From IMG/VR virus record IMGVR_UViG_3300021197_001447, positions 1 through 20,257 of that record: a DNA stretch of 20,257 nucleotides; one strand, written 5' to 3'. A program made the position numbers and the translations under genes. This stretch comes from a virus. Position 1 is the stretch's first letter. Every line of letters begins with the position of its first letter. This document shows, piece after piece, positions 1 to 18,138 of this stretch. Under the pieces are notes generated by a model. The model was given only the letters and a program-made list of their open reading frames with translations. It made no database searches and was not told the origin of the DNA.

Positions 1-2331
1 ATTTATATTAGTATCTTCAGTCAACGCGCCTATCGCTTTCGACCCAGTTGCAATCAAACCCGGACCAGCAAGGGCAATGGTTCCTGTCGTTCCGTCCGTG
101 AAACTGTCTACTGTTAGAATAGTTTCTGCGGCTAGTGAAATCCCCGACACACCAAGAGTGGTTCCCTTGATATGAACATTGCTCGTCTTCGCGGCAGAGA
201 TGTTGACCGCAGTTCCGTAACCGAAGGAAAGTCCTGCTAATGGATATGCGAATGTACATCCAGATATACCTACGTTGGTTGAAAGAACTGCACCAACCTG
301 AAGATAGTTATTGAGAACGTGTGTATCGGTCAATCGAACTGAGGAAGAATCGGCAGCGATTACACCTCTTCGGTTGTGAATAACACTACTGTCGTAAAGG
401 TTTACTGTGCATCTTTGATTTGCATTGATTCCGTCAGTAGTCAAACCATTTGCATAGTTACCGAGTGCGTGAGTTATTCCGTTGTTAAAGTAGTTACCGT
501 AGAACGAATTGAGCAAAGAGGTGTTTCTGAGTCTTACACCACCACCGAAGTTAAACGAAACTCTATTTGAGTTTGTTGCTATGCTGGAGATATCATCTGC
601 TTGCATTCCATAACTTCCGTTTCGGAATGAGATACATCCGTCTCTACTCGATACTCCAAATCTAAACACAGATGTGTGTGCGGATGGAAGGGATATTCCA
701 TTACCAAATCCGAACACTCCAGCAAAGTCTGAGGTGTTTCCTTGTACACTTCCTGTATATGATGCTGTGCTACCACCCAATCCCATAAAGGAATTTTCTG
801 CGGCGTAGTATCCGTATCTACCGTTGAAAGTTGAAACTGACCTTCTAATATTAGCGTTAGAGTTTTTCTTAATCTGGACTCCATCATTGTGGTTAGCAGA
901 GTAGATGTTATAATGTGAATCTAAGTCACTGCTTTCACAGACAACCCCAAACGAGTTTCCAGTCCACAGACAATAGTCTGCCGAAACCGAAGATGTGTTC
1001 ACTGAGTATAGTCCGTAGTTGTTAGCGGAAGAGACAAGACCTGTTCCGTACACCTTGGATTTATCTACATAAACTCCATAGTCAAATCCAGAGATTGCTA
1101 CATCTTCAATTGTGCATGATGAGTTGTTCATGACACCGATTCCCATTCCAGTCACTCCTGATGTGAACTCATATGTTCCACCACCAACGTCATGACCTTT
1201 TCCGAGAATAACTACATTTGAAATCTTTCCAAGTTTACCACCATTTTTAATTACTAAACCGTTACCACTGTCAAAGTTCAATCGACTTCGGAATACTTGA
1301 ATGCTTGAAAGATTACTATGTCTTTGTTGTGCTGTCGTAAGCACGGGTTCATATGCTCTACCACATGCAGTGAGTCCGGCGGAGGCAAAGGCGGCTCCCA
1401 TCGGAACTGCACCAGTTGCTCCAAACGGGTCACCACCAGAAGAAAGTATTGTGTTACTTCCTCTTGTTGCTTCACCTTTATATGTTGAAGTAGGCTGTCC
1501 AATGGAACCTTCGGTTGTTGAATATGCAAGACCTTGTGGTGTAATGAATCCGTCTGTTTTCGTTGCACCGCTTGTGAGTCCACTTTCATATGACTGATTG
1601 TCATGACGAACGTGAACAAGAATGCATGGATTAATATCAGTTCCACCTGTTGCTAAAATTTCATGTGCGCCAACTGCTAAGAATTTACGAAGAGAAACAC
1701 TGGCACCCTGAGCGGTATTTCCGCTCAGACCATTTTGACCTGTTGCCATGTAGATATCACCAGTACCACCGAGGTCAGTTTCAAATCCAGTTGGTCCTGC
1801 ACCAGACACTCCAACTGTAATTGGATATGCTCCGTCTGGTGTATAGTTTTGTTCTTTAATTACTGCAATATCACCAGGCTTAATGTTTGTAGTGGAGTCT
1901 ACACCAATTTCCATGTAGTAACCACCAATACCAGAATTGGGATTTCCGATAGTTGCAGTATATGCATTACCACCGAAAGATGCACCGGCATTAGTTTGAT
2001 AGTAATTGTAATTTCTTGCTATCAATGAAACAGGTGTTTGTCCGACGATTTGGATTCGTTCACCATCTGGATGGTCGATGACAATTTCTGATTCTTGATA
2101 ATCCGCGAGAATATTTACTACATCAGCAATGTTAATTGTTACTGTTGCAGTCTTTGCAATTTTCTTATCTCGCAGTACATTAAATGCTTTTCCTAAAGTC
2201 CTCCACGGAGCGTCAGAAGCACCCGAGGCGTTATCGTTACCAGTGGTGGAAATGTAGTAATTAACATTAGCATTAATTACTGTAACGAATTGGTCGTCTA
2301 GACCTGAAATTGTAATATGACTATTTGCCAT
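1..2331 (-). CDS. Parallel beta-helix tail spike/fibre-like protein, 3' end beyond window
   Basis: My own reading of the minus strand from ATG at 2331 to base 1 gives 777 codons with no stop, so the C terminus lies outside the window. Residues 25-50 carry the pattern YYISTTGNDNASG followed by PWRTLGKAF. From memory, this pattern (YYxSTxGxDxxxG...P..T...A) opens pectate-lyase-like right-handed beta-helix proteins of phage tails. Residues about 400-740 show short Asn/Gly/Ser-rich rungs (for example NNYGLYSVNTSSVSADYC and NGRYGYYAAENS), as expected of parallel beta-helix coils. A likely role is binding or cleaving host surface polysaccharide at the tail tip; no catalytic residues can be assigned by eye. 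The start is supported by AAGGA six bases before the ATG, and a second GGAG lies further upstream. A late-promoter-like CTAAATA box lies 23 bases before the start. The fold call is fairly firm; enzyme activity is unproven. Confidence 0.82.
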   Translation of the reverse strand, partial: MANSHITISGLDDQFVTVINANVNYYISTTGNDNASGASDAPWRTLGKAFNVLRDKKIAKTATVTINIADVVNILADYQESEIVIDHPDGERIQIVGQTPVSLIARNYNYYQTNAGASFGGNAYTATIGNPNSGIGGYYMEIGVDSTTNIKPGDIAVIKEQNYTPDGAYPITVGVSGAGPTGFETDLGGTGDIYMATGQNGLSGNTAQGASVSLRKFLAVGAHEILATGGTDINPCILVHVRHDNQSYESGLTSGATKTDGFITPQGLAYSTTEGSIGQPTSTYKGEATRGSNTILSSGGDPFGATGAVPMGAAFASAGLTACGRAYEPVLTTAQQRHSNLSSIQVFRSRLNFDSGNGLVIKNGGKLGKISNVVILGKGHDVGGGTYEFTSGVTGMGIGVMNNSSCTIEDVAISGFDYGVYVDKSKVYGTGLVSSANNYGLYSVNTSSVSADYCLWTGNSFGVVCESSDLDSHYNIYSANHNDGVQIKKNSNANIRRSVSTFNGRYGYYAAENSFMGLGGSTASYTGSVQGNTSDFAGVFGFGNGISLPSAHTSVFRFGVSSRDGCISFRNGSYGMQADDISSIATNSNRVSFNFGGGVRLRNTSLLNSFYGNYFNNGITHALGNYANGLTTDGINANQRCTVNLYDSSVIHNRRGVIAADSSSVRLTDTHVLNNYLQVGAVLSTNVGISGCTFAYPLAGLSFGYGTAVNISAAKTSNVHIKGTTLGVSGISLAAETILTVDSFTDGTTGTIALAGPGLIATGSKAIGALTEDTNIN

Positions 2332-2354: not shown

Positions 2355-2361
2355 TATTTAG
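2355..2361 (-). promoter_or_regulatory. T4-type late promoter candidate (CTAAATA) for the beta-helix gene
   Basis: The minus strand reads GTCTAAATATAGAC here; the CTAAATA part resembles the single -10-like box of T4 late promoters (TATAAATA). It overlaps the TAA stop of the collar-fibre gene and lies 23 bases before the ATG at 2331. A start a few bases downstream would give a leader of about 15-20 bases containing the ribosome site, the compact arrangement common for T4 late genes. It sits in the largest gap between genes in the window (26 bases). The box also lies in a small inverted repeat (GTCTA, 4-base loop, TAGAC; 2350-2363), probably too weak to matter. Position supports the call; it is one base off the T4 consensus. 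Confidence 0.5.
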
Positions 2362-4799
2362 ACCATAAATCCTTGATACATTTCTGCTTCTGCGGTATAA
2401 TGTAAGTGAATTAGGTTGTCGCCCTGAGAATAATTACCAAGGTCGTTGTTGAGGGCTATGTTTGTAAATCCATTGGTTCCTCTTCTTGAGATAGAAGTGA
2501 CCGATGTCGGTACACCATCTCTAAGTCCAGAGTGCATTGGGTAAATAGTTCCTACGTTTCCGCTGGAATTATCACTACCCCCACCATATGGGTCATACAA
2601 TCTGACGTTAGGTTTTGCTCTCATTGTTGTTGGGAAATGTACACTGTCGTGACATGTATTACTTATAGCAGGGTCTGAAAGACCAACTGGTGCATTATTT
2701 GCAGAATCTGTACTACCGGGAACGGTGTCAACATTGTATGATTTCTGATAGTATCTTTGTAACTTCGTTAACTCTTCTGCACCAGTAGGAATCTTGAGGT
2801 TTGTTGCATATGCACCGGGTTCTAATTGAAACTGAGTAAGACCGATATATCCACCAACCGCCATTCGTCCGGGTTCGTTGCAATTAAAGTGGTCAGGTGC
2901 GCCAAAAAGATTATCAGATTTCCATAAATTCAAGTTTGAAGTTGTAGTTCGTACATTTGTACCTGCACTCAAAATGAAACTAACCTGAAGACCAATACCC
3001 TCTTCAAATTGCCAATTTGCAAACTGTAGTTCTGATAGTGGAACAACTATTTTCTTTCTTACCCATCCATTGGATTCTGTAGAACTGGTAAATGGTGCAA
3101 CATAACTTCTATTGTTTGCCGCATTTCTGAAAACTACAGTAAGAGGAGTAGTGTCAGAAATTCCGGTTGTAGCATCGTCGTTTTTGACTAAGAATGAAAA
3201 GGTAAAGAAGTCGCTTCCCCATAGTTTCTGGAAATCATATCCCTCAATTGCTTGGGACATTGAAATAAATCCATTTGAGGTTGTTTCTGTGTCGGTGGTC
3301 TTTTCAATTTTCATCCAATATGACATTGGTGGAGAATAGTAACCTGCTACTTCAGTACCAGAAGAACTAATTAGACCCGGAGCAGGTCTACCAGTCGTTT
3401 CTCTTGAGATAGTAAATGCCGCAGAACCACTTCTAGCATAATACCATCTATCCATAGTATGGAAACTACTTGCAACATTGTCACTGAAACTGGTTCCTCT
3501 CTGTGAAACTCTAAGAAGAGGATTATGAATCAGATTAGTTTCCGCAACAATATCTGGTTTAAGAATAAATTTTGATGTATCGGCATCAAACGATACCAAA
3601 TCACCCGGAGCCATCGAATCACTATCCGAGTTATTTGCTCCACCACGGGAAGAATCAAAATCACCGAGACCAGACAGGTTCGATGTGAACAACGCGGCGT
3701 TTGCTTGAGCAGAAGCCTTTATTATGAAGTTAACGGCAAGGTGTGGGTTCGTAATATTAAACGAAGAACCACTACCTGCCTGACTAACACTAACAGGCAT
3801 ATCAACAAGTCTAGTATCAAAGTCCATACCACCCGCAGTAGGAAGCCAGTTATTACTTCCTACTGGAGCATCGTCCATAATTCTTTCTACGGGAATAGAA
3901 TCACTATCACTAGAATGCTGATTTTCTAATTGTCCATCAGCAGGAGAAAAATCAAAAGGACCTGTACCGTCTGCTACAGCGGCAAGCAAGTCAGAACGAC
4001 TTCGAATTGCATCGTCTCGATACATTCTATATGTTGCAATGTGTGAGTGAGCAGGAACATTCGAAAGATTTAGTGATACATCTTCTTGACCACCACCACC
4101 CCCTAATGGTCTAGCATTTCGTGAATCATCTCTATCTTGATTGTTTGATTGTTGGTTCACACCCAGTGCAACTCTTCCTCTAAAATCAGGAAGATAATAA
4201 TTGTTTCCTTCGTGTCCTCCGTAAATATCACCGACCAAGTTAGCAAGGTCTGGATATTCTATACTAGTAAATGTTTTACCATCACATAGCAGCCAACCTT
4301 TAGGAACATTGTCATCAGTACCAGCAAAGGGTGCGATTGTTCCGACAGGTTGCACTTCGCTTAAGTCAACTAGACTATCTCCACCAACACCATTTTGTAA
4401 ACCAATGTAATTTGCAACAACGCCCTTTGTTGTGGACATCATTGTTACCATTGCTTTTCTTACGGTTCCGGTTGTGGAGGGAGGAGTTGCTGTGAGTTTA
4501 CCAGCCGCCGAACCACTTAGAAAATAAACCGTTCCTCCGGCAAAACTTCCTGTGTCCGGTTCACCTTCACTTAAGTCAATCAAACCAGAGAAAACAATAT
4601 TAGCAGTCGTCGCTGTTCTACTTTCAATAACACCGATTGCTTCTGCATTACTTGCAGTGTCCGCTTGTGCCTTGACATATGTAGATGTGTCAGTATCAAA
4701 GCGAACGACATCACCCGAAGCAAAGTTATTACTTTGATTTACTGTTAATCGAGCGCCTGAACCGCTACCTTGTTGACTTACGAATGCACTGTTACCCAC
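2358..4799 (-). CDS. Tail fibre with phage tail-collar domain near its N terminus
   Basis: An 813-residue protein, probably a receptor-binding fibre. Residues about 20-138 form a beta module ending near VVANYIGLQNG that is related to residues about 382-541 of the fibre encoded just upstream. Residues about 149-365 are a tail-collar domain (Pfam Collar type): VGTIAPFAG, GWLLCDGK, YLPDFRGRVALGVN, a Gly-rich run, PAHSH (H251, H253) and NPHLAVNFIIK. T4 short tail fibre gp12 has such a domain and binds zinc through an HxH pair; equivalence here is inferred. Residues about 395-415 look like a partial second copy of the first module. From 422 (NPLLRVSQRG) to 686 (LEPGAYAT, then ELTKLQRYY) runs a carbohydrate-binding-like fibre domain, followed by a 127-residue C-terminal part. 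Collar domains usually sit at the C terminus, so this order is odd. Translation starts at GTG; the next in-frame ATG is over 100 codons later. Confidence 0.88.
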   Translation of the reverse strand: MGNSAFVSQQGSGSGARLTVNQSNNFASGDVVRFDTDTSTYVKAQADTASNAEAIGVIESRTATTANIVFSGLIDLSEGEPDTGSFAGGTVYFLSGSAAGKLTATPPSTTGTVRKAMVTMMSTTKGVVANYIGLQNGVGGDSLVDLSEVQPVGTIAPFAGTDDNVPKGWLLCDGKTFTSIEYPDLANLVGDIYGGHEGNNYYLPDFRGRVALGVNQQSNNQDRDDSRNARPLGGGGGQEDVSLNLSNVPAHSHIATYRMYRDDAIRSRSDLLAAVADGTGPFDFSPADGQLENQHSSDSDSIPVERIMDDAPVGSNNWLPTAGGMDFDTRLVDMPVSVSQAGSGSSFNITNPHLAVNFIIKASAQANAALFTSNLSGLGDFDSSRGGANNSDSDSMAPGDLVSFDADTSKFILKPDIVAETNLIHNPLLRVSQRGTSFSDNVASSFHTMDRWYYARSGSAAFTISRETTGRPAPGLISSSGTEVAGYYSPPMSYWMKIEKTTDTETTSNGFISMSQAIEGYDFQKLWGSDFFTFSFLVKNDDATTGISDTTPLTVVFRNAANNRSYVAPFTSSTESNGWVRKKIVVPLSELQFANWQFEEGIGLQVSFILSAGTNVRTTTSNLNLWKSDNLFGAPDHFNCNEPGRMAVGGYIGLTQFQLEPGAYATNLKIPTGAEELTKLQRYYQKSYNVDTVPGSTDSANNAPVGLSDPAISNTCHDSVHFPTTMRAKPNVRLYDPYGGGSDNSSGNVGTIYPMHSGLRDGVPTSVTSISRRGTNGFTNIALNNDLGNYSQGDNLIHLHYTAEAEMYQGFMV

Positions 4800-4805
4800 G
4801 GTTTT

Positions 4806-4810
4806 CTCCT
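4806..4810 (-). promoter_or_regulatory. Ribosome binding site deciding a GTG start
   Basis: AGGAG lies six bases before GTG at 4799-4797. The box overlaps the TAG stop of the upstream fibre gene (TAGGAG), so ribosomes finishing that gene are placed on the next start. This supports GTG as the real initiator, since no ATG lies nearby in frame. Confidence 0.75.
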
Positions 4811-7733
4811 AGTGTATACTTGTATCTATGTGGATTATTCCATTGTATGTATGGAATTGTCCAGCGGTTGCTGAATCTCCGGTTCTTTCTACAACCAGTG
4901 AACCAGTGTACCCACCAATGCTCTTGACATCGGCTAGGGTTAGTTGTCTTGTAAAATCTCCGGTTCCGCCCATACTGATTGCTTGAACCACTGCTCTGTT
5001 TGCGGTTGTTGCAGGAATACCATCACTACTAAATCCTGTGTTCGGGAACAGAGTCTTAGTGAAAGGAACATGAACAGGAACTACTGCATCGTTGTATGCT
5101 CTTTGGTGAGCATGAACAGGAACGACATTGTAGTATCTTTCACACAATTCCTTTTCGGTATTGTATGGTCTTTCTTCGAATCTACTTGCTTTTCTTCCTG
5201 ATTCAATTTGTACTCTTGCGAGTTCAAATCCAGCAGACAATCCTGCGGTATTACCGGGAATTGTAAATCGAAGTTCTAACCAGTTACTACCAGCAGAAAT
5301 TCCGGGTAATTGATTACCCTTCTGTAATCTGAACGTGTGTTGCTTGTATGTCCAATCTACAGGAAGGTCGTAGGTGTGTCCATATTGACCACCATCAGAG
5401 GCAGCACCTTGATGCAAGTATCCGCTTGGGTATACTGAGATTGCGTGTGTTGCACCACCACCATAAGTGAGTCCTTCGAGAGATGCTCCATTGAACACCT
5501 GAAGAAGACTTACACTAAAGTCTGAAGTTGCACCACCTTGTCCTAGAACATTTCCACTCTCAGAACCTCCACTTGCATAAGTTAGTCCTGCGTGCTTAAT
5601 CCAATACGAAACTACTACGTCTTTCTGTTCACCAGTTCTTCCGAATGTCTCAACGTCTTCAATTCTTTGTGCAAGAACGACATTTCCATCACCCTTCGAT
5701 GTATTCTTCTCTACTCGGATAAAGTGATTAATTGGTTTTGCACCACCTTCACTAAATACTTGTTTTTCTGGTCCTGTTGCCGCAAACCTACTTACTGTAC
5801 ATTTACTTGTATCGTCATCGTCTGCCGCTCTTTGTGAAGGACCAACTACCCAACAATCTGCGATGTAACCAGTGACACCTGCGTTAAAATCTAAACTACA
5901 ACCATCATAAGTTATTCCATATGGGGGAAGAAGTAGTTTTCCTGTATCGCGTGATGCGATTGCTGCGTCATATCCACCAGTATGTTCCCATCTTTGCCAG
6001 AATTCAAAATCACCATTGATGATTTTGTTTCTAAATGTCATCTGTGGGAGATATTCTGGTGTTGTCATACTTCCACTAACTTGGTCAAATTCCAAGAAGT
6101 CAGAAGAGATACCAGTTGTTTGACCGATTTCAAATCCTGCATAGTTTACAAACAATCCGACTGTATCAGAGACACCGAGAATAACGGGTTTTCTAATTTC
6201 ACCGGGAATGAGTGGGTCAGTTGCAGTGATTCCGCCAAGTGGTCCGTGTGTTCCGTTCAGGAAGTATGCTTCACCGGGAGAAAGTGTAAATCCACCAATT
6301 CCATCATTCTGAGTAATACCGCCAGGTCCGTGACCTGTTGCTCCGAATCGGTCTGCTTTTGATAAGTCAACAAGACCGTTGAAGCAAACAACAAATTGGT
6401 CTGCACTTCCTCCAACCCCAACTTCTTCAACAATACCGACAACTTCTGCTGTGGCTCGATTTACTGCTGAAGCAGCCTCGAATGTAGAACCAACACCAAG
6501 TACTTGACTAACCTCATGAGGACCAGCATAGAACTTCACAACCATACCGGCACTAAGTCCGTGACTTACTTGGGTAACTAATTGTCGGTTTACCCACTGA
6601 TAGTTTAGGAATTTGTCATTTGAAATCCCAGAACCTGAAGTGGGAATTCCCGCTTGTTTGGGTTCCCATGTAAATGAACTTTCGAATGTTGTTCCACCAA
6701 AGAGAACGTCACCATCCAGATGACTAATCTGAACCGTTCCTCTCGGTGTAATTGCCATTGCTTCTTTTTCGACACCACCGATTGTATCTTCATATCGAAT
6801 CTTTAGTCTCGATTGAGTATCTCCGGTTTCAAACGCTTCGAACTCATAGTACTTACCAAGTTGAGTAATCGAGGAAAGTCTAAGTTGAACATTTGAAGTT
6901 TTGTGTGAGAAGATTGTGAAATCAGAATTCGTTAATGCTCTTGCCGTTTCGAAGTTCAAATCAACATTGGGTTTGAATGAAACGAAGGAACTGGGGTCAG
7001 ACATTGAAGAAGGATAATCTAAAATGAATTCTTTATCACCACTCATTCCCTTAACAATAAATCCAGCACCGTCGAGTTGTGCATCGTTCGAACTACCGTA
7101 TGTGTTGTCGCCGGTGGAAGATGTTGCTAACCAAATTACCTTATCATCAATGTAGAGTTCAGTAGAATTTATTTGGGTTACATCACCATCAAACCAAATT
7201 TTACCAGTGAATCTGTGGTCGCCACTAATTGAGTACGGAAGCATTTCTTCGGCTTTAACGCTACGAGGAAGTTCTTGTCCGTGACTATAATCTGCGACTA
7301 CAAAGTAATCGTCTTTTGATACAGGTTGTCCGTTTTCACCACCAGAAGCACCAGGCATTCCACCAATGTCTAATGCAAGAACCATAGTTTTTGCTGAGAC
7401 ATCTGGATTACTTGCACCAGTTGAACCTCCAAGAGTAGAACCTGCTTGGATAAAACGAAGACCAAACTCACCCTGACCCGTTACACCATCAACACCTGCT
7501 CCTGAGTATGAACCTCTGAGTGTCCCGTCATATTCATTTACACCCTGACCGATGTTTAGTCTAATTGTAGTTGTGCCATCGACCGCTCGATACTTAGAAA
7601 GACCTAAGCCGGTATCTACATCATATACGTTAAGTTTATTAACGACATCAATCATGTCGTTACTTCGCAAGAACCATTCGTTGAATGTGTCTGCTAAAGC
7701 AAGAGGTGTTATGTAATGTAGAGTGCTTGCCAT
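4809..7733 (-). CDS. Large modular tail fibre protein
   Basis: A 974-residue fibre. The N terminus (residues about 8-60, with ADTFNEWFLRSNDMIDVVN and LNVYDVDTG) resembles, from memory, the start of tail fibres in marine T4-like phages and is probably the virion attachment end. Residues about 178-245 hold INSTELYIDDKVIWLA followed by DGAGFIVKG, a motif common in T4-like fibre shafts. Residues about 382-541 form a beta module (GLVDLS, GEAYFLNG, EIRKPVILG, FVNYAGFEIG) that recurs in the next gene. Residues 563-872 are a carbohydrate-binding-like domain, opening with NKIINGDFEFWQRW and closing with RFEERPYNTEKELCERYY; about 100 C-terminal residues follow and may be the tip. ATG at 7733 is preceded by GAGGATAAGG. 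The TAG stop is fused to the ribosome site of the collar fibre gene, so the two are probably translationally coupled. The fibre role is firm; the receptor is unknown. Confidence 0.87.
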   Translation of the reverse strand: MASTLHYITPLALADTFNEWFLRSNDMIDVVNKLNVYDVDTGLGLSKYRAVDGTTTIRLNIGQGVNEYDGTLRGSYSGAGVDGVTGQGEFGLRFIQAGSTLGGSTGASNPDVSAKTMVLALDIGGMPGASGGENGQPVSKDDYFVVADYSHGQELPRSVKAEEMLPYSISGDHRFTGKIWFDGDVTQINSTELYIDDKVIWLATSSTGDNTYGSSNDAQLDGAGFIVKGMSGDKEFILDYPSSMSDPSSFVSFKPNVDLNFETARALTNSDFTIFSHKTSNVQLRLSSITQLGKYYEFEAFETGDTQSRLKIRYEDTIGGVEKEAMAITPRGTVQISHLDGDVLFGGTTFESSFTWEPKQAGIPTSGSGISNDKFLNYQWVNRQLVTQVSHGLSAGMVVKFYAGPHEVSQVLGVGSTFEAASAVNRATAEVVGIVEEVGVGGSADQFVVCFNGLVDLSKADRFGATGHGPGGITQNDGIGGFTLSPGEAYFLNGTHGPLGGITATDPLIPGEIRKPVILGVSDTVGLFVNYAGFEIGQTTGISSDFLEFDQVSGSMTTPEYLPQMTFRNKIINGDFEFWQRWEHTGGYDAAIASRDTGKLLLPPYGITYDGCSLDFNAGVTGYIADCWVVGPSQRAADDDDTSKCTVSRFAATGPEKQVFSEGGAKPINHFIRVEKNTSKGDGNVVLAQRIEDVETFGRTGEQKDVVVSYWIKHAGLTYASGGSESGNVLGQGGATSDFSVSLLQVFNGASLEGLTYGGGATHAISVYPSGYLHQGAASDGGQYGHTYDLPVDWTYKQHTFRLQKGNQLPGISAGSNWLELRFTIPGNTAGLSAGFELARVQIESGRKASRFEERPYNTEKELCERYYNVVPVHAHQRAYNDAVVPVHVPFTKTLFPNTGFSSDGIPATTANRAVVQAISMGGTGDFTRQLTLADVKSIGGYTGSLVVERTGDSATAGQFHTYNGIIHIDTSIH

Positions 7734-7738
7734 TTACC

Positions 7739-7939
7739 TTATCCTCGGTTTAAGAGTTCTCTTAAGAGTTCTTTGAGTTCTGATATATCATTCTCTATTG
7801 TATTTAGTCGATTTTCTTTCGACTGATTTTCTTTTTGTCTTTTAAGAAACGATTCATATGCAACTTTGTTGGTGTTCACTAGACCACCAGAATGTAAGTC
7901 TCGTTCCAAATCATCGTTACCTTCTACTTTCATTCTCAT
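7739..7939 (-). CDS. Small coiled-coil protein of T4-like structural cluster, function unknown
   Basis: A 66-residue acidic and basic protein. The N-terminal part reads MRMKVEGNDDLERDL then GGLVNTNKVAYESF; the second half (residues about 33-64) is a heptad-like helix with NRLNTIENDISELKELL, so a short coiled coil is likely. Its ATG overlaps the stop of the DUF4815 gene (ATGA), a strong sign of coupled translation; AAGG lies ten bases upstream. I recall similar small proteins (start MKVEG, then a sentence like INTNKxAY, then a coiled coil) beside tail genes of marine T4-like phages, but no function. It might be a minor virion part, a chaperone or a trimerisation helper for the fibres. ATG at 7933 is a possible alternative start but lies further from the ribosome site. 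The next gene starts five bases after its stop. Confidence 0.8.
   Translation of the reverse strand: MRMKVEGNDDLERDLHSGGLVNTNKVAYESFLKRQKENQSKENRLNTIENDISELKELLRELLNRG
7801..7807 (-). promoter_or_regulatory. T4-type late promoter candidate (CTAAATA) for the fibre genes
   Basis: The minus strand reads CGACTAAATACAAT inside the small coiled-coil gene, about 68 bases before the ATG of the 974-residue fibre. CTAAATA is the same box found before the beta-helix gene, and one base off T4 TATAAATA. It also encodes Leu-Asn-Thr of the small protein, so chance is possible. Confidence 0.35.
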
Positions 7940-10900
7940 GATGTCGATACCTTCTTGGTCAGAGCAAAGGTAGCAAGTTTCTTGACTACAGGAACATCAG
8001 ACTTTGCTGGATTTCCAGTGAAAACCATTTTTGTTCTGTAAGATTTGTAGTTACCCAGTTCAATTCCAGAAGGAACTTTATATGTGTAATCTGCAAAGTC
8101 TTCTTCGTCGGATGCATTTTCTATCTTCTTAGACTCTTCTGTTTTTTCAAGTTTTACATACTTCTGTTCAGTGAGGTCATCTTTATCGTCAGGAAGAACC
8201 TGAAGATAAACTTCAACGTCACAGTCTGCGGGCATCGCCGCTTTGAGTTCAACCTTGACATCATTTGCAACTAGGTCGAGTGGAGTTGTTTTGGAAAGAT
8301 AACGAGAAACGGAAACGTCTTCTTTCTTTGTTGGTTTCGGATTCTCTTCACCCGTAGTGTCAGTCGAAATGTTATTTTTAACTGCTACCAGACTCAATCT
8401 GTCCAAGTCGAGTACAGGACTAATATCCTTATTATCAGTCTTAAGTTCTATAGAAAGTAATTTATTGTTCATAGTCAGTTCTGTTTTTGCATCTAACTTG
8501 ATGTCATTGTGTTCCACGACCTCTTCTTCTTTATTAAATGCAGTCGATGCCGGAATTGTCTTAATCTTGACACTCGTATCTGGTTTCTTAACGATATCTG
8601 CTTTAACATAAATCTTATGTGCAGTTGGTGTCTGTACAGTTTCTCTGATTTCGTTTTTAGCACTACCAGAAACACCCTTGACATTGAATGTTTTTATTGT
8701 GGTTGTATCATACTCAGCCTTGTTTACTCTGAACATGATATCCTTTGTCAAATCCATAGTTCTCTTTCCGTTACTCTGTGGTAAGAAAAGATTTCCAATG
8801 TAAGGTTGCTTTACTGCTTCCTGTACACTCTCAGTTCCATCTAAGGTAATACCCTTTCTTCCCAGTTCAGTTGACCAGAGAGAATACTTGTCGGTATTTG
8901 CTTTTACTGTGATTGCATAATCACCAGGCTCAAGATGAATAGCACTATCAAATTTGAATCGAGTGTATGAGTTTACGTTTGGTGATGTTGCATTGAACGT
9001 ACAACCAGTAGCGGCTCCATTGCTCATTTTTACAACGTGACTTAGAGGAACTGCATACTTAGGGTCTGGTTGCTCACCAACGACAGAACGCAATTCCACT
9101 TCTACAGGAACAGCAGAATTTATTTCACTGAACCAGAGGTCGATACTGGTCGCCATGATTCCCTTTTTGTTTTTAGTGGGGTCTACTGTGAAGATTTGTG
9201 CAAGTGGGTCAATTTTATCGTTGACCGAACTTTTCTGCATAAATCCGCGTTCTCGGTCACCCGTTGAAAGTTTTGTTTGACTGACAGATTCTTGGACAAT
9301 TTCTACTTTTCTTGTACTTCCGGTTTTGTTTCCCTCGGTCTTAACATCACCAATTGTAAAGATTGAAGAAGAGGTAGAAGTTTGTTTTCTTCCGGCAGAG
9401 AATTCAGCAGTGCTGGGGAGTTTATCGCTGACTGTTACGTTTAACTCACCAGAAGTAAAGATATTCTCTTCGGTTATTACAACCTTAAATGCAATCCTAC
9501 CTGTATGTGAACCATCAGCGGCACCAGAAGCAACCGTGTCTTTCGCAACCCGATTACCTGCAATATCTCCACTTGGAGTGTTACCTGCACCGGAGGTGAA
9601 TATTTGTGTTTCGGGTTTGAATGGAGTTAATTTTGCTCCGATGTTCTTACCCTTGTCATCAGTTCCTGCTTGATTAATTTTCTTACCATTGATATACACG
9701 CTATGTTGAGTATTAGGTTTCAGACCATTAGCGATTCCATAGAAAGTCAATGCTCTTGCTGGAGCCTTTGCATTTTCCCAACTTACCACATAGTGGTCCG
9801 CAATTGCATATCGTCTGGCTCCGAAAATCGTGTTGACGTAACGAGACTGACGTTGAACGCTGACGGTTTGACCTCTCCGGGCAGCGTCTGCTTTCAGTTT
9901 CCGTAGTTGCTTATCACTGGTAGCAACTGCATACGTTCTATTTTTGTCAGGTTGGTTGAATCGAAGGGTTCTGTTGTTCCACATATTGTACCAATTGTTT
10001 CTAGCGAATCTACCAAACAAACCACGACCACGATAGTACCGATTCCTACGACCATAAAAACCTCTCCATGCCCCATAACTACGATTCCACCATAGTCCAT
10101 ACGCACCCTTTGAATATGCGTATGCTCTTGCTTGTTTGGCTAAAACATTATTAGCAGTATTTACGTCACCAACACCACCGAGAGTCCGGTATATTTGAGC
10201 AACCCTGCTTGTGGTGAGATGCTTTTTGTCAGCAACTGTTGGTTTTGCTTGGTCTGCCCAGTCATCTGAACTTGGAGAAAGTTTAAGTTTTCCAACGAAG
10301 TTCTGTTTTGCTGTTGGATTTATTTTGAGATTTGTATTTCCTTCTAAGTTAGAAAGATATGCAACATCTTCTTTACTTGGAGTGAGTGTAATTAATCTGT
10401 CATCGGAAAGAGTAATACCATCAACATTTATTGATTCCATTTCCAAATTAATGTTGGTGCAAGAAACTGCTGGTCGTAACCTGTTTCCATCATATGCTAC
10501 ATTAGATTCATCATTCAATTCTGCTCTTTCAGGGCTAGAAAAATCATCAACATTCAATGCATTCATGAATGGTTCATTTTCTAAGTCTTCAACTCGTTTA
10601 CGAAGAGTTTCAATTTCTGCTGTGTTCAAATCACATTTTTCTTCTACATCCGAAAGACGAGTATCAAGTTCACCAATGTCTCTCATGGTATATCTTCGAT
10701 TGTCTGACTTTTCAATCCGAAGACTATCTGGAGAGAATGTATATGGAGGAACATCGAGAGTAAAGAGTTTCATACCATCATCCTCACTGAATGTTGGCAT
10801 AATTGGTTCCATAGAAGGAATACCTTCAATATGTTTAAATTCTGTATCATTTTCAATAACGATTAAATCGGTTCTTCCCATGTAGTGCTTATATGACACA

Positions 10901-13674
10901 AAGTAGAATTCACCATCTTCTGGTGTGAACGCACCTTGAACGCTGCTCGGAGAAACCCCCGTTGCAAGTTCCAAATTGCTGTTTTGTATCGTCTTCTGTG
11001 AAGGAACCCGAATAGGTCTGTGGTCAATACAATCTCTTAGACTTGCTCTTGCACCATTAGCGGGATTAATGAATGCCGGAATAGTTTCATAACCAAACGC
11101 CGCTCCAGTTTTACCATCAGAAGTAATACCAACGTGGTCGCTGTGAATATATGAATTCACACAAGCAGGCATCAAAATTGTGCTGTAGTTATTACTGACT
11201 GACATCTCGTGTTCAAAGTAGGTGAGAGTTACTTTGAACAGCGTTTGACCTTCTGGGGTGTTATTCCATGCACCTCCTGGACCAGCAGTTCCATCAAAAC
11301 CATCTCGGAGTATGAGATATGCGTGGTCATAGAGGTAACCCTTTTGTCCATCATTGAAGTCAAATTGTTCTGTAATATCTTTGCTACCACTAGCAATATC
11401 CAAAACCTGTTCAACTTCATATACATCAGAAATACCCAAATCAATTCCATTTCCATCCTGTATAAACTGATTAAATGAACCACCGGGAATATCAATTGTT
11501 GTTCTTTTGAGTGTCTTCTTTCTGAATTGAGAATCTAGAAGTTCTGTTTGTGCCGCATCTGCATTTGTTCTAATATTCGCTAGAACCAGAGCCGTTTTTC
11601 TTGCTCCATTATCAGTTCCTGCACTTGAACCACCGATGTGAATACCATCACTATTGATTCTTACTTTAAGTTCTCTACCACCAGATGCAATTTCAAGTGC
11701 GTTATCGCCACCAGCCAGGTCACCAGTACCACCTCCAAAGGTGTAAACATAACCGTCGGCAGCAACAATGTATTCGTCTAGTTGGTCTGCATCATCGATA
11801 ACACCATCACCTGCACCAGCACCCGCAAAGAAGAATCCTTCTGGGATGTGGTTGAATGGGTTATCTGCAAGAGTAGAAGTTCCTGCACTACCCTCGTAGT
11901 ATCCAAGAGATTTGTTCCATGTCAGTTCAACTCTAAAGTCTCTTTGAACAACATAGTCAAGTCCCATGATAGTTTTAACTGTATTTCCTTCTGGAACTTG
12001 ATACACTAAATTAGTGTTTCCTTCGTCCCCGAAAGTTGAACCCAATGTACCTCCGCCTACTGCTTCGGCTTCAAAAATTTGTTTATTTGAACCTGCTTGT
12101 GAAAAGTAAACTACATCGCTAATACTCGCTGTGTTAAACTGTTCTTCGAATCCAGCGACTTCACCGAATTGAACATTGTTCAAGTATAATCTGTAGATGC
12201 CTCCACCACCAGTAGTATGTACAAGCAACTGAACTGCATTAGCACAACCAATTCGGTCGTTTGATTGATTCGAAAGAATCAACTTCATTTGTTTAGGTCC
12301 TACAACAGTATCGAAAGTTGCTCCCTCAGTTGGGATATGATAGAACAGGCTTCCAGATTCCTGACCACTAAACAAAGGCTTACTTGCAGTGTTTTTAACT
12401 AGAACATAGTTACCCAAATCATTTTCGATAAGTTTACTAACTTGTTCTTTAATATGGTCTTCGTCTCTTGCTTTTCGACCAATGATGTATTCAGTATCTT
12501 GTAGTTCGAATTCATGTCCCCTAACATAACACTTACCGGGTTCAATTCCGAATGCAAGGTAGTTGTCCGCACCGGCAGTATTTCCATTATCATTGATTAG
12601 TGGATTGGTGCTATTGTCTGGAATAAATTCATCAACATACTCTTTTATTTCTAGTTCGAATGGTGTGACTTCGTAGTGACCAGACTCGTCGTAGGTTCTT
12701 CTTGCAAGAGTTTTTTCTAGTTCTGCATAGTCAGGATATTTTACTGTCTTAAAGGTTTCTCCTTGAAGAATCCTAACCAGTTCCACGAAATTTTCATTTT
12801 CATAATTCGAACGGAATCCATCTTCGTTGTATACGAAATGCTTCTGTGAAAGTTGTAGGTCAATCTGATATCGGTCAGCACCGGGAGCATTGTAGTTGTA
12901 TGAACCTTGTGCTGGGTCACGAAGTGTAACATCACTTGATTCTGTTACAGTTTTTCGATTCAACGAAAATCCAACAACAGCAGTTTGTTTTGTTGGGTCA
13001 AAAATTCGTTCGCCGACCAAACCATCATTTGTATCTGTGTTTGAGTAATAAACCGTAAGCACTTGTGCTGAATTTTGCACAAAGAATCCTTCGACATAAA
13101 ACAGACCTTCACCCACAGAAATCACAGTACAGTCTCCGCTACTCGCAGCATTTGTTGATGCAGAAGCAGAAACTGTAAATGTAGTGGTTAAGTTTGGATT
13201 TGTACTGGTAAAGGTGGAGTTTGTTTTGTATAGGTCTTTCTGATTTGCGGCATAATCCAAGGAAGGCGTCCCAGTATCTGCTTCTAGACCAACACCACTC
13301 ATTGGTTCATAAATTACAATTTGAGTTTGGTCGTCAGAAACATTGTCAATGACATCGAGTACTTTGCCTCTTTTGTTTCCACTAAAGATTTCAAATCCTT
13401 TAAGGAGAGCAAGTTCGGTGGAGGAAACAGATTCAATGCGAACAAATCTTGCTTCAGTTTCGTTGATTTCACCACCACGAACAACAGAACCGTTGTCAAA
13501 AACATGGTCACCAAAGTTAGATAACTGATTGTTAAGAATGCTCTGAAGTTGACTTAGTTCTCTTGCTTGTACGGAATAACCCGGACGGAAAAGAATTCTA
13601 AGAAACTTCTTCGACTCGTCGAAATCGTCGTAGTACGGTGAAACATTAAATCGTGATTTCTTTTCTCTTGCCAT
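7936..13674 (-). CDS. Giant DUF4815 virion structural protein (baseplate/fibre connector candidate)
   Basis: A 1912-residue protein. The N terminus (FNVSPYYDDFDESKKF, then LFRPGYSVQARELSQLQ and FGDHVFDNGSVV) is the hallmark of DUF4815, found in virion proteins of T4-like cyanophages and relatives. Residues about 995-1031 form a predicted coiled coil (ELDTRLSDVEEKCDLN to TLRKRVEDLENE). Residues about 1180-1240 are strikingly rich in Trp, Tyr, Arg, Asn and Gly (GLWWNRSYGAWRGFYG, RRNRYYRGRGLFGRF). Residues about 1489-1653 (DPLAQIFTVD to KQPYIGNLFLPQ) and about 1789-1905 (RYLSKTTPLDL to VKKLATFAL) match beta modules I recall from the C-terminal part of such proteins. No signal peptide or membrane helix is seen. 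It follows gp8 by ten bases and precedes the fibres, so it may link fibres to the wedge as gp10 does in T4; that is inference. AGAGGA precedes ATG at 13674. Its TGA overlaps the next start. Confidence 0.88.
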   Translation of the reverse strand: MAREKKSRFNVSPYYDDFDESKKFLRILFRPGYSVQARELSQLQSILNNQLSNFGDHVFDNGSVVRGGEINETEARFVRIESVSSTELALLKGFEIFSGNKRGKVLDVIDNVSDDQTQIVIYEPMSGVGLEADTGTPSLDYAANQKDLYKTNSTFTSTNPNLTTTFTVSASASTNAASSGDCTVISVGEGLFYVEGFFVQNSAQVLTVYYSNTDTNDGLVGERIFDPTKQTAVVGFSLNRKTVTESSDVTLRDPAQGSYNYNAPGADRYQIDLQLSQKHFVYNEDGFRSNYENENFVELVRILQGETFKTVKYPDYAELEKTLARRTYDESGHYEVTPFELEIKEYVDEFIPDNSTNPLINDNGNTAGADNYLAFGIEPGKCYVRGHEFELQDTEYIIGRKARDEDHIKEQVSKLIENDLGNYVLVKNTASKPLFSGQESGSLFYHIPTEGATFDTVVGPKQMKLILSNQSNDRIGCANAVQLLVHTTGGGGIYRLYLNNVQFGEVAGFEEQFNTASISDVVYFSQAGSNKQIFEAEAVGGGTLGSTFGDEGNTNLVYQVPEGNTVKTIMGLDYVVQRDFRVELTWNKSLGYYEGSAGTSTLADNPFNHIPEGFFFAGAGAGDGVIDDADQLDEYIVAADGYVYTFGGGTGDLAGGDNALEIASGGRELKVRINSDGIHIGGSSAGTDNGARKTALVLANIRTNADAAQTELLDSQFRKKTLKRTTIDIPGGSFNQFIQDGNGIDLGISDVYEVEQVLDIASGSKDITEQFDFNDGQKGYLYDHAYLILRDGFDGTAGPGGAWNNTPEGQTLFKVTLTYFEHEMSVSNNYSTILMPACVNSYIHSDHVGITSDGKTGAAFGYETIPAFINPANGARASLRDCIDHRPIRVPSQKTIQNSNLELATGVSPSSVQGAFTPEDGEFYFVSYKHYMGRTDLIVIENDTEFKHIEGIPSMEPIMPTFSEDDGMKLFTLDVPPYTFSPDSLRIEKSDNRRYTMRDIGELDTRLSDVEEKCDLNTAEIETLRKRVEDLENEPFMNALNVDDFSSPERAELNDESNVAYDGNRLRPAVSCTNINLEMESINVDGITLSDDRLITLTPSKEDVAYLSNLEGNTNLKINPTAKQNFVGKLKLSPSSDDWADQAKPTVADKKHLTTSRVAQIYRTLGGVGDVNTANNVLAKQARAYAYSKGAYGLWWNRSYGAWRGFYGRRNRYYRGRGLFGRFARNNWYNMWNNRTLRFNQPDKNRTYAVATSDKQLRKLKADAARRGQTVSVQRQSRYVNTIFGARRYAIADHYVVSWENAKAPARALTFYGIANGLKPNTQHSVYINGKKINQAGTDDKGKNIGAKLTPFKPETQIFTSGAGNTPSGDIAGNRVAKDTVASGAADGSHTGRIAFKVVITEENIFTSGELNVTVSDKLPSTAEFSAGRKQTSTSSSIFTIGDVKTEGNKTGSTRKVEIVQESVSQTKLSTGDRERGFMQKSSVNDKIDPLAQIFTVDPTKNKKGIMATSIDLWFSEINSAVPVEVELRSVVGEQPDPKYAVPLSHVVKMSNGAATGCTFNATSPNVNSYTRFKFDSAIHLEPGDYAITVKANTDKYSLWSTELGRKGITLDGTESVQEAVKQPYIGNLFLPQSNGKRTMDLTKDIMFRVNKAEYDTTTIKTFNVKGVSGSAKNEIRETVQTPTAHKIYVKADIVKKPDTSVKIKTIPASTAFNKEEEVVEHNDIKLDAKTELTMNNKLLSIELKTDNKDISPVLDLDRLSLVAVKNNISTDTTGEENPKPTKKEDVSVSRYLSKTTPLDLVANDVKVELKAAMPADCDVEVYLQVLPDDKDDLTEQKYVKLEKTEESKKIENASDEEDFADYTYKVPSGIELGNYKSYRTKMVFTGNPAKSDVPVVKKLATFALTKKVSTS

Positions 13675-13684
13675 GGTTTCCTCT

Positions 13685-15754
13685 TTAGAATCCTAGTAGA
13701 ATTTGATATTCTTCCATTTGTTCGGCGCCCTTTACAATGGGCTTCATATTTTGTGCATATAAGATTTCACCAGAATTGAATTTAATCTCTGGTATTTGTA
13801 CAGTATTTATAACGCCAATTCTTGCTGCCGCACCAGAAATACTAATTGCTTCTCCTGAAGTAAAAGACCCGGATTGGTTTATCAGAGTAAGTTCTCCGGT
13901 GTTTCCACCAGCAAATTCTTGGAAGTGAAAAATGGTTGCCTTTCCACCATTAGCCCCCGTAACAGCAGAGTCATCTGGGAAGGTGCTTTCTAGGAGAGGA
14001 ACTTTAGATGCGTCTGCACTAACACCAACAAAGGTGGCAGTTCTAAAATTAATTTGAGTTTGGTCCCTTGCTGGTTCTTGAACCCCAACAACTCTGGCTT
14101 GTTCATTATTGGTTACCGACCAAATTTTAGTCGAATCATCATATTTCATTTCACTGATTGCCTCACCAGTAAATCCAAACGCATAAGGTTGTTCAAATTC
14201 TCCTTGAACATTTTTTAGTTTTAATATACCATATCCGGCTTCGTTTGAAGGAGCGTAAGAATCAATTTTTCCTGTGGCTTTAGTTTCACTTCCAATTATA
14301 AAATTACCAACTGTGTATAGACTTTCTGCTAGTCCATCACCGGAAGAATTAGATTCAATTTTCATTTCTTTAATGATGTCAGTTTGAGTAGATGCAAGTC
14401 GGACGGGATTTCCATTACTATCAAGATACTGAGTGTCTGTATCATTTAATTTTGGATTTTTAACAATACCATATTGAAGTATGTCGTTATCACCAGAAAG
14501 ACCGGATATTTCTTCAGTTGCTTCGAATCGTTTTACAAGCAAAATATTACTTGCACCAAATTCTCGAACTGCATCTGAACCATGACCACCTCTAGGTGGG
14601 ATAATCGGATAAGATGAAAATCCAGCATAGTTTCCACTTGCAGTCGCATTGTCTGTTGGTACTATTACAGGTGTTATTTCTGTGTAGTTTTTGCCTGGAT
14701 TTGTCATAACGATTCTATCCAGTTTTTTATGAGTTGGATTGTTTCCATCGTATTCTGAGAATTTCAAATAACCCTCTGCGGAAACACCATCACCAGAAAA
14801 ACCCAAACTGGGTACAATCTGATAAGTTGACAGTTCTGTTACTGGCATTCTTAGTGGAGTTTCTATTGTGGCTATTCTAGTTGCTCCAACGTAATCTGTT
14901 ATTTTTGATACCTGTACCGCTCCGGGTCCTTTGGATACAATTAAATCCATATTGTTGTATGCATCGTCTGTTCCTAAAGAACCCGTATTAAGGGTGACTG
15001 TGGTCGAGCCAACTCCTGAATTTGAAGAAAACTGATATCGACCCACATCGATTTCTGCATGAGCAGATGCATCCCAGTTGTCTTCTCTCACAGAAGCCGG
15101 TAAGTCAATAAAGAAAATACCACCATCGATTGCATTTGATTGTATGTCAAATTGTCTCTGTGATACATCATCAAAACCTCTACTAGTCACTACAGGAACT
15201 GGAATGTATTCTGCTGATATAAACTTTCTTAGTTCTTCGGGAATGGTATACATGAACTTCCACATAAAACCATCTTGGGTGCTGAATACACCCGAGGTTT
15301 TTGTTGAAGAAGGTTTAGTTGTAGTTAGTGCGTTATTGTTATTCGAAATACATTTGTATACATTGTATTCTTCAGTCATCACATAATAACGCTTGCTCTC
15401 AAGATTCTCTTGGTGATTGTATTGGGTGTATTGAGTCGAACCCGACCAATCATATCGAGGAATCATATAAGAAATATCACTCGCATTGATTGCTTTCATT
15501 GCAATCATGTTTCTTGAGATTTCTCCATCTTCAAATGCAGAATCAATTGGATGATTGAAGATTGATTCTCCGGCAGTATTTCCGCGAGAAGTGGAGTAGT
15601 CACTCCCGTCAAACACACCGTCCGCAGTCCACCCAGTAGTCTTACCAATAAACATAAAGAGATTGTCTTTCTCTTTAAGAGTATCAATAAAAGCCTTTGC
15701 GGAATAATTCCGTATAGATTTTCTGATTGGGCTATTACTACCAGTGGAAGACAT
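13685..15754 (-). CDS. 8: Baseplate wedge subunit gp8, long form
   Basis: A 689-residue protein whose two ends match T4 gp8 (334 residues). At the N terminus the order is AKAFIDTLKEKDNLFMFIGK, then MIPRYDW (T4: VIPRRDW), YNVYKCI (T4: VYRCL), DGFMWKFMYTIPEEL (T4: DGYVWEYLFEIP) and EYIPVPVV (T4: EYIVVPW). At the C terminus GEILYAQNMKPI and EEYQILLGF match T4 GEMIYMENRPPI and EEINILFTF. In T4, gp8 is a wedge component bound to gp7, gp10 and gp6. Here about 350 extra residues sit between, with Gly/Ser-rich beta segments, including two repeats ending FTGEAIS and FTSGEAIS that also resemble a stretch of the gp7-like protein. TAGGAGT precedes ATG at 15754, 19 bases after the upstream stop. Identification is firm; the role of the insertion is unknown. 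Confidence 0.88.
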   Translation of the reverse strand: MSSTGSNSPIRKSIRNYSAKAFIDTLKEKDNLFMFIGKTTGWTADGVFDGSDYSTSRGNTAGESIFNHPIDSAFEDGEISRNMIAMKAINASDISYMIPRYDWSGSTQYTQYNHQENLESKRYYVMTEEYNVYKCISNNNNALTTTKPSSTKTSGVFSTQDGFMWKFMYTIPEELRKFISAEYIPVPVVTSRGFDDVSQRQFDIQSNAIDGGIFFIDLPASVREDNWDASAHAEIDVGRYQFSSNSGVGSTTVTLNTGSLGTDDAYNNMDLIVSKGPGAVQVSKITDYVGATRIATIETPLRMPVTELSTYQIVPSLGFSGDGVSAEGYLKFSEYDGNNPTHKKLDRIVMTNPGKNYTEITPVIVPTDNATASGNYAGFSSYPIIPPRGGHGSDAVREFGASNILLVKRFEATEEISGLSGDNDILQYGIVKNPKLNDTDTQYLDSNGNPVRLASTQTDIIKEMKIESNSSGDGLAESLYTVGNFIIGSETKATGKIDSYAPSNEAGYGILKLKNVQGEFEQPYAFGFTGEAISEMKYDDSTKIWSVTNNEQARVVGVQEPARDQTQINFRTATFVGVSADASKVPLLESTFPDDSAVTGANGGKATIFHFQEFAGGNTGELTLINQSGSFTSGEAISISGAAARIGVINTVQIPEIKFNSGEILYAQNMKPIVKGAEQMEEYQILLGF
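13804..13811 (-). promoter_or_regulatory. T4 late promoter candidate (TATAAATA) for the DUF4815 gene
   Basis: The minus strand reads GTTATAAATACTGT: an exact TATAAATA followed by CT, close to the extended T4 late consensus. It lies in the 3' end of gp8, about 130 bases before the ATG of the DUF4815 gene, and would give a leader of about 120 bases. It is the only exact TATAAATA I found on the coding strand. It also encodes Ile-Asn-Thr of gp8. Confidence 0.5.
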
Positions 15755-18133: not shown

Positions 18134-18138
18134 TTCCT
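18134..18138 (-). promoter_or_regulatory. Ribosome binding site fused to the gp6 stop codon
   Basis: AGGAA overlaps the TAG stop of gp6 (TAGGAA) and lies just before ATG at 18128. It supports this start and points to translational coupling of gp6 with the gp7-like protein, the same arrangement as before the GTG-started collar fibre. Confidence 0.6.

What the first reader, a model, noticed from the sequence alone, without database searches (positions are those of the whole stretch)
2358..7733. Same modules reused in two neighbouring fibre genes
Residues about 382-541 of the 974-residue fibre and about 20-138 of the 813-residue collar fibre share the order: GxVVxF, GIVE/GVIE, F.GLVDLS/GLIDLS, YFLNG/YFLSG, ..RK.., VNYAG/ANYIG. 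Both also carry an LINGDF/LIHNPL...QR opening and an EL..(L/C).RYY closing motif of a binding domain, with different C-terminal tips. This suggests duplication followed by tip divergence, a route to broader host range.
Basis: partly seen in the sequence, partly recalled or inferred. Interest (0 to 1): 0.5.

Follow-up and report, generated by a model that had tools for sequence, protein, structure and literature searches.

The report
Ancient module shared by neighbouring fibre genes
Two neighbouring fibre genes of an uncultured phage do share building blocks, but the sharing is old and recurs in many other phages, so it is not a recent copy made in this genome, and one shared block may be a connector that lets one fibre plug onto the other.

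Summary
Module A (fibre ~373-545, collar fibre ~4-145) is homologous: BLASTP 48.5 bits against at most 32 in 2000 shuffles, profile E 3e-23. Module B is homologous only by profile; the tips are not. Local duplication in this genome is not supported. The pair recurs in other uncultured phages, each gene resembling its counterpart there more than its neighbour; joining the window's two A modules is rejected (AU p=0.00013). Module A occurs in 95 distinct contigs or records; 51 show the same tight pair, internal A upstream and N-terminal A downstream. The two genes' B modules lie on opposite sides of a split with SH-aLRT 100, pointing to separate acquisition. Module A is predicted to resemble phage decoration proteins and is related to the repeating bead of the Anabaena phage A-1(L) neck fibre, whose trimers join head to tail; module B looks like a CBM4 jelly roll. 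Best reading: an old two-gene fibre cassette. That one fibre docks on the other through A is plausible but untested (about one in three).

The parts
4809..7733 (-). upstream fibre gene, 974 aa (N-terminal region - module A - module B - tip)
   Evidence: counterparts next to a collar fibre in L002, L008, L012, L091, L092, L103, L105, L173, L174, L179 and others
6624..7733 (-). N-terminal region of the fibre (residues 1-370), 47-51% identical to 10 relatives; inferred virion anchor
   Evidence: no convincing PDB match by sequence; anchoring role inferred
6099..6617 (-). module A, internal copy (residues 373-545)
   Evidence: iterated profile
5076..6035 (-). module B of the fibre (residues 567-886)
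4809..5075 (-). fibre tip (residues 887-974), gene-specific, ends HIDTSIH
2358..4799 (-). downstream collar fibre gene, 813 aa, GTG start (module A - Collar - shaft - module B - tip)
4365..4790 (-). module A, N-terminal copy (residues 4-145)
   Evidence: iterated profile; AlphaFold2 model of residues 1-150, pLDDT 89.3, pTM 0.82
4170..4343 (-). Phage Tail Collar domain PF07484 (residues 153-210)
   Evidence: E 7.5e-17
2703..3542 (-). module B of the collar fibre (residues 420-699), CBM4-like jelly roll in the model
2358..2702 (-). collar fibre tip (residues 700-813), gene-specific
   Evidence: the phrog_4492 match extends to residue 807
7936..13674 (-). VrlC-like protein upstream of the fibre cassette (phrog_358)
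1..2331 (-). right-handed beta-helix protein downstream of the pair, open at the contig end
   Evidence: PF13229 E 1.3e-9; found in 12 of 52 pair loci, the window included

Best explanation
The two genes form an old, vertically inherited fibre cassette of T4-like aquatic phages, lying between VrlC and the neck genes. Shown: module A is homologous in the two genes; upstream (internal) and downstream (N-terminal) copies fall into separate lineages that diverge in step across phages; module B in the two genes belongs to two different branches of a widespread phage domain; the tips are not detectably related. Inferred: module A was duplicated once, or recruited twice, long before these phages split, and module B was brought into each gene separately. 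The upstream protein is anchored by its conserved N-terminal 370 residues. The collar fibre has no domain before its module A, so A is most likely its attachment domain. Module B is a CBM4-like jelly roll near the tip, probably binding surface glycans. How A attaches is the open step: I give about one in three to docking on the neighbour's module A, as in bead-chain neck fibres, about 30% to docking directly on the baseplate, and the rest to other roles.
For: Counterparts of both genes, adjacent, in the same order and with the same domain order, in independent contigs. Among 14 close relatives, module A identity averages 54.5% between upstream copies (minimum 41%) and 46% between downstream copies, against 28-40% between neighbours. 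Module A tree of 140 rows: window fibre-A with L002 fibre-A (99*), inside a 12-row set of upstream copies only (98*); 48 of 54 downstream copies plus 1 upstream copy in one group. AU test rejects the window's two copies as one clade (p 0.000132) and does not reject one clade of 48 downstream copies (p 0.905, higher likelihood). Parallel divergence: Mantel r 0.716, 0 of 2000 permutations, 43 contigs; r 0.704, 0 of 2000, without L055 and L086. Module B: 113-row tree with reciprocal sampling, SH-aLRT 100 split between the side holding all 9 collar-fibre B rows and the side holding all 31 B rows of module A proteins without a Collar. Fold: decoration-protein-like hits for A, CBM4 Z 13.3 for B. VrlC-like gene in 30 of 52 pair loci; neck, sheath-stabiliser, small terminase and sheath genes downstream in L002.
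Against: Deep forks of the module A tree have little support (140 columns, 49 of 137 inner branches open, quick search), and six downstream rows fell outside the main group; I left those six out of the AU test after seeing the tree. The tree has no root, so one duplication and two separate recruitments cannot be told apart. In L055 the two copies are each other's closest relatives (44.7% against 38-39%), so local duplication does happen in this family. Fold matches of A are middling (no Foldseek E <= 0.001; best Z 8.6). 11 of 95 contigs carry a single module A gene with at least 1.5 kb searched on both sides, and in 12 the two genes lie more than 400 nt apart. I found no biochemical data for these fibres.
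Confidence: 0.72

Rival explanations
1. One reading: one fibre gene (or its distal half) was duplicated locally in this genome and the tips then diverged under selection for a broader host range.
For: Same module order and adjacency; own-pair module A identity is slightly above random pairing (34.1% against 32.2%, 0 of 5000 permutations, 43 contigs; 34.2% against 32.6%, 6 of 5000, 41 contigs; 36.0% against 34.6%, 121 of 5000, 14 contigs); one contig, L055, does look like this.
Against: The window's copies are much closer to their counterparts in other phages; AU rejection; module B falls in two distant branches and shows no own-pair excess; tips not homologous by profile.
Confidence: 0.03
2. 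No duplication at all: module A is a widespread fibre and virion domain that each gene recruited on its own, long ago, from different donors.
For: Module A is found in 95 distinct contigs or records, including single-gene cases and A-1(L) neck proteins; module B seems to have two sources, so separate recruitment is normal here.
Against: Two or more module A genes are commoner than one in this sample (72 against 23 of 95), and upstream and downstream copies diverge in step (Mantel r 0.716), which shows long joint inheritance though not its start.
Confidence: 0.25
3. The collar fibre docks straight onto the baseplate through its N-terminal module A, as a second, short fibre independent of its neighbour; adjacency only reflects operon order.
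For: T4-type phages have separately attached long and short fibres (recalled); A-1(L) also has separate long and short tail fibres (passages).
Against: It does not explain why the same domain is carried by both neighbours in 51 of 95 contigs, or why in a 134.8 kb and a 149.9 kb contig all module A matches at E 0.01 (2 and 3) lie in this gene pair.
Confidence: 0.3
4. Module A is a ligand-binding barrel rather than a connector.
For: 2 of 88 module A sequences hit the endosialidase beta-barrel family PF12195 (best E 6.3e-5); weak partial fold match to endosialidase NF (Z 4.3, 52 residues).
Against: The fold match covers about half of the domain; stronger and fuller matches are to chains of phage capsids and head fibres; the N-terminal place in the collar fibre suits attachment, not tip binding.
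Confidence: 0.12

Closest known systems
Neck fibre gp82-gp81-gp80 of Anabaena phage A-1(L) (PMC10966104; passages and section 8 read)
   Same: Two adjacent genes that carry module A: gp81 (168 aa, residues 53-157) and gp82 (about residues 122-233), E 2.4e-18 and 3.4e-13 with the iterated profile. In that paper gp81 trimers connect head to tail and dock on the gp82C trimer, and the distal gp80 has a carbohydrate-binding module.
   Different: There the chain sits on the neck and repeats gp81 about 14 times; here A is one domain of two long fibres beside baseplate genes. The gp82 match appears only after profile iteration (E 0.44 before; not found by profile A6).
Branched tail-spike complex of Ackermannviridae, TSP4/TSP2 of CBA120 (PMC11721090; passages)
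   Same: Neighbouring receptor-binding genes flanked by vriC share a homologous N-terminal domain; the anchored protein (TSP4) and the second one (TSP2) bind each other through it (XD2-XD2).
   Different: The XD domains are T4 gp10-like; module A looks like a decoration protein. No interaction is shown here.
phrog_4492 tail fiber protein (C-terminal part)
   Same: Both proteins match its C-terminal region with module B; the collar fibre matches to the profile's end, tip included.
   Different: Module A lies outside the best-matching stretches.
phrog_523 tail collar fiber protein
   Same: The whole collar fibre matches it from residue 21 to 209 (E 4.1e-13), so some members may hold module A before the Collar domain.
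   Different: Module A on its own does not match it, nor does any member of the 88-sequence set at E 0.01.
CBM4-type carbohydrate-binding modules
   Same: Predicted module B fold: Z 13.3, 161 residues, 2.5 A to CBM4-2 of a Rhodothermus xylanase; also phage spikes and fibres (CBA120 TSP4, Kp7 gp52, Pa193, K2-2) at Z 9.8-10.7.
   Different: 8-17% identity; no ligand shown; only the collar-fibre copy was modelled.
Host recognition cluster between VrlC and gp14 of pelagimyophages and cyanomyophages (PMC7029224; passages)
   Same: Same genomic place: fibres directly after VrlC, followed further on by connector, sheath-stabiliser and terminase genes in L002.
   Different: The passages seen do not mention a shared module or a gene pair.

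Membership tests
Phage Tail Collar (PF07484) | match above the curated score | tested here: met
   collar fibre residues 153-210, 61.5 bits against cut-off 24; the upstream fibre has no Pfam match
phrog_4492 tail fibre C-terminal region | profile match | tested here: met
   E 3.1e-31 (collar fibre) and 6.1e-22 (fibre)
CBM4-like jelly roll (module B) | beta-sandwich fold like CBM4 | tested here: met
   Z 13.3 over 161 residues, predicted model of the collar fibre copy only
CBM4-like jelly roll (module B) | binds glycan | not testable with these tools
   no ligand data
capsid decoration / head-fibre fold (module A) | same fold as solved decoration proteins | tested here: inconclusive
   best Z 8.6 (8saj_1), then 7.8, 7.6, 7.4; no Foldseek E <= 0.001
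A-1(L) neck-fibre bead (gp81) | sequence homology to gp81 | tested here: met
   tblastn E 5e-4 from L008 collar-A; profile A3 E 8e-7; profile A6 E 3e-10; the window's own modules alone find nothing
A-1(L) neck-fibre bead (gp81) | trimers joined head to tail | not testable with these tools
   only monomers were modelled; no biochemistry
Local tandem duplication | neighbouring copies are each other's closest relatives | tested here: not met
   window; met in 1 of 43 pair contigs, L055
Ackermannviridae XD docking domain | gp10-like fold | tested here: inconclusive
   no gp10 or TSP N-terminal structure in the 50 rows shown, which excludes nothing

The most novel reading that the evidence does not exclude
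Module A is a self-recognising trimer connector: the collar fibre plugs its N-terminal A trimer onto the A trimer inside its upstream neighbour, so that the two genes build one composite or branched fibre with two glycan-binding jelly rolls. The same adjacent A-A gene pair would mark composite fibres across many uncultured aquatic phages and, with the bead-chain neck fibre of A-1(L), form one family of plug-together phage fibres.
Probability: 0.33. Interest if true: 0.62.

Novelty: new variant of a known kind. Interest (0 to 1): 0.4.

Why it matters
Many phages known only from metagenomes carry fibres that annotation leaves as 'hypothetical' or 'tail fibre'. It also corrects a tempting inference: similar neighbouring fibres here are an old pair inherited together, not a fresh duplication for a wider host range.

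Tried and rejected
Close relatives by single-protein scans: none for the fibre, two contigs for the collar fibre. No DNA match of the window in the phage records. Module A of the window found nothing in the phage records by tblastn at E 1; modules of L123 and L120 found nothing at E 0.1; that of L008 found eight records, seven of them Nostoc, Anabaena or Dolichospermum phages. By profile, S-N03 and Vibrio phage D479 have one module A match each. Synechococcus phage S-SSM5 has none, although it has VrlC and a long fibre in the same place. PDB sequence searches gave weak hits that I took for chance: best E 0.85 for A, 0.075 for B, 0.0068 to human CD2 for the fibre N-terminus, 0.13 or more for single module A sequences. 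A partial third copy of the start of module A in the collar fibre (residues about 393-411) scored below zero and was dropped. The first module B tree was sampled mainly around collar-B; I repeated it with a reciprocal scan around fibre-B, with the same split. Families absent from the fold listings are not taken as excluded: T4 gp10, CBA120 TSP4-N. Passages on the capsid fibres of phage 7-7-1 (PMC12796354) gave nothing that bears on module A.

Rows dropped: module A copies spanning fewer than 95 residues, and tree rows over 75% identical to a kept row; B stretches under 170 residues and rows over 70% identical, new rows over 60% identical and then rows of other proteins over 50% identical; in the AU test of the downstream group, the downstream rows of L055, L086, L087, L117, L148 and L150, after seeing the tree. 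The names gp13, gp14 and gp15 are my labels for three L002 genes; one search supports connector, head closure and sheath stabiliser.
Full report
What the window is. The 20,257-base window is a whole IMG/VR contig. The large genes are on the minus strand and read, in their own order: a gp6-like baseplate wedge protein (18137-20038), another wedge protein (15774-18128), a gp8-like protein (13685-15754), a VrlC-like protein (7936-13674), the 974-aa fibre (4809-7733), the 813-aa collar fibre (2358-4799) and a beta-helix protein open at the contig end (1-2331). The related contig L002 continues, after the beta-helix gene, with connector, head-closure, sheath-stabiliser, small and large terminase and sheath genes; its large terminase is 62% identical to that of Synechococcus phage S-RIM8. 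So this is a T4-like phage near the cyanomyophages. Fibres directly after VrlC are the known 'host recognition cluster' of marine T4-like phages (PMC7029224, passages).

The observation. It is real. Module A links fibre residues 384-537 with collar fibre residues 17-137 at E 1.5e-9, 48.5 bits against a maximum of 32.0 in 2000 shuffles. Profile against profile it reaches E 3.3e-23. Module B is not significant between the two proteins alone (E 0.14) but is clear between profiles (E 6e-27), and both proteins hit the C-terminal part of phrog_4492. The collar fibre has a Collar domain between A and B. The tips are unrelated by profile (0.3%, 14 fibre tips against 11 collar-fibre tips). The fibre tips end in similar strings (such as YHIDTSI or YHFDFSI), and 8 of 11 collar-fibre tips in an HYTADAE-like string, so each tip type belongs to its gene; in L103 and L105 the collar-fibre tip is a different one altogether.

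Not local. Contig L002 carries both genes side by side, 55% (over the 585 residues that the contig holds) and 66% identical to the window's. So do L008 and L012 and further contigs found with module A profiles. In 42 of 43 dereplicated pair contigs the upstream copy has a closer upstream copy in another contig than its own neighbour, and likewise the downstream copy; the one exception is L055, whose two copies are 44.7% identical. For the window the values are 66% (fibre) and 78% (collar fibre), against 35% between the two. In a 140-row tree the window's fibre-A joins L002's fibre-A (99*) inside a set of 12 upstream copies (98*); 48 of the 54 downstream copies form one group with one upstream copy (support 89). 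Forcing the window's two copies together costs 112 log-likelihood units and is rejected (p-AU 0.000132); forcing 48 downstream copies into one clade raises the likelihood (p-AU 0.905). That group was trimmed of six downstream rows after seeing the tree, and deep forks are weak, so 'one old origin' is favoured, not proved. The label counts agree: 6 changes for the downstream label against 43 in shuffles.

How widespread. Module A occurs in 95 distinct contigs or records, three of them named phage records (193 copies of at least 95 residues); 72 of the 95 have two or more module A genes; 51 show a gap of at most 60 nt with an internal A in the upstream gene and an N-terminal A in the downstream gene, and in 32 of these 51 a Collar-like domain was detected downstream. 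By gap alone 53 of 95 have two genes within 60 nt, 7 within 61-400 nt, 12 further apart; 11 are single with at least 1.5 kb on both sides and 12 are single near the end of the stretch held. The sample was drawn by similarity to modules A and B, and one search kept the best 80 of 111, so these are not population frequencies. In the 134.8 kb and 149.9 kb contigs searched whole, all module A matches at E 0.01 (2 and 3) lie in the pair. A VrlC-like gene is in 30 of 52 pair loci, a lower bound since flanks are short. Upstream and downstream copies diverge in step (Mantel r 0.716, 0 of 2000, 43 contigs; r 0.704 without L055 and L086).

Module B. The first tree used relatives collected mainly around collar-B. 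After a reciprocal scan around fibre-B (best 80 of 158 kept) the 113-row tree still splits with SH-aLRT 100 into 41 rows holding all 9 collar-fibre B domains plus 32 B domains of other proteins, and 72 rows holding all 31 B domains of module A proteins without a Collar, the window's fibre among them. The two B domains therefore most likely come from different branches of a widespread domain.

Structure and likely work. The collar-fibre module A model is confident (pLDDT 89.3, pTM 0.82). Its best structural neighbours are chains from phage capsids and head fibres: Adjutor Z 8.6, HFTV1 7.8, BB1 7.6, Pam3 7.4, XM1 7.3, and phi29 gp8.5 base 4.6; also phi29 gp12 C-terminus 7.4. That these capsid chains are decoration or cement proteins is partly recalled. 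No Foldseek E reaches 0.001, so this is a resemblance. Among predicted viral proteins 79 match at E <= 0.001; most of the 50 shown are uncharacterised proteins of uncultured phages. Sequence ties module A to gp81 of Anabaena phage A-1(L) and, after iteration only, to gp82. In that phage about 14 gp81 trimers are modelled as connected head to tail and docked on gp82C, making a bead-chain neck fibre with a carbohydrate-binding module at its end (PMC10966104, passages and section 8). Module B with its tip is modelled at pLDDT 85.0; the B part matches CBM4 modules (Z 13.3) and several phage spikes.

Mechanism. Shown: homology, separate lineages, two branches of B, conserved N-terminus of the upstream fibre (47-51% identity to ten relatives). 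Inferred: the upstream fibre is anchored by that N-terminus; the collar fibre, whose module A begins within its first residues, attaches through A; module B binds glycans. Docking of A on A would explain adjacency, order, parallel divergence and a small own-pair excess of identity that A shows (34.1% against 32.2%, 0 of 5000, 43 contigs; 34.2% against 32.6%, 6 of 5000, 41 contigs; 121 of 5000, 14 contigs) and B does not (1745 of 5000, 10 contigs). That excess is small and could also be composition or rare conversion, and the B set is small. A close working analogue is the TSP4/TSP2 pair of Ackermannviridae, which also lies in a cluster flanked by vriC and is joined through a shared N-terminal domain (PMC11721090, passages). 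Against docking: single-gene cases exist, and the stretch before module A in the collar fibre is not a confident hairpin in the model (mean pLDDT 59 for residues 1-10), whereas A-1(L) is modelled to dock by N-terminal hairpins.

Known or new. Searches of the paper library (listings only except where passages are named) showed no description of this gene pair or module in uncultured T4-like phages; this is no proof of absence. Of 88 module A sequences, at most two match any one Pfam or PHROGs family at E 0.01, though the whole collar fibre matches phrog_523 over a stretch that includes A. Modular fibres, shared adapter domains and bead-chain fibres are known; the recurring A-A gene pair is, as far as I could see, a new variant of that kind.

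Noticed in passing
L103:7198-8304 and the L105 collar fibre (L105:5944-8298): Collar fibres that keep A, Collar and B but end in a wholly different tip, a likely tip replacement in that lineage.
   Followed up: partly
window 1-2331: Beta-helix protein directly after the pair, conserved in 12 of 52 pair loci; a possible third fibre or spike of the same cassette.
   Followed up: no
L098, L101, L104, L108, L113, L120, L141, L142 (upstream gene): The upstream gene often holds two module A copies in tandem; the second copies form their own groups in the tree, so tandem copies are old too.
   Followed up: partly
L055:2640-3628: Two small overlapping genes of 179 and 153 aa, each largely module A, like gp82/gp81 of A-1(L); the only pair contig whose two copies are each other's closest relatives.
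   Followed up: partly
L106:78-10776: Very long pair (1929 and 1625 aa) with module A in both and several B pieces in the second.
   Followed up: no
window 2358-4799, collar fibre residues about 393-411: A short GDLVSFDADTSKF stretch that echoes the start of module A but scores below zero with the profile.
   Followed up: partly
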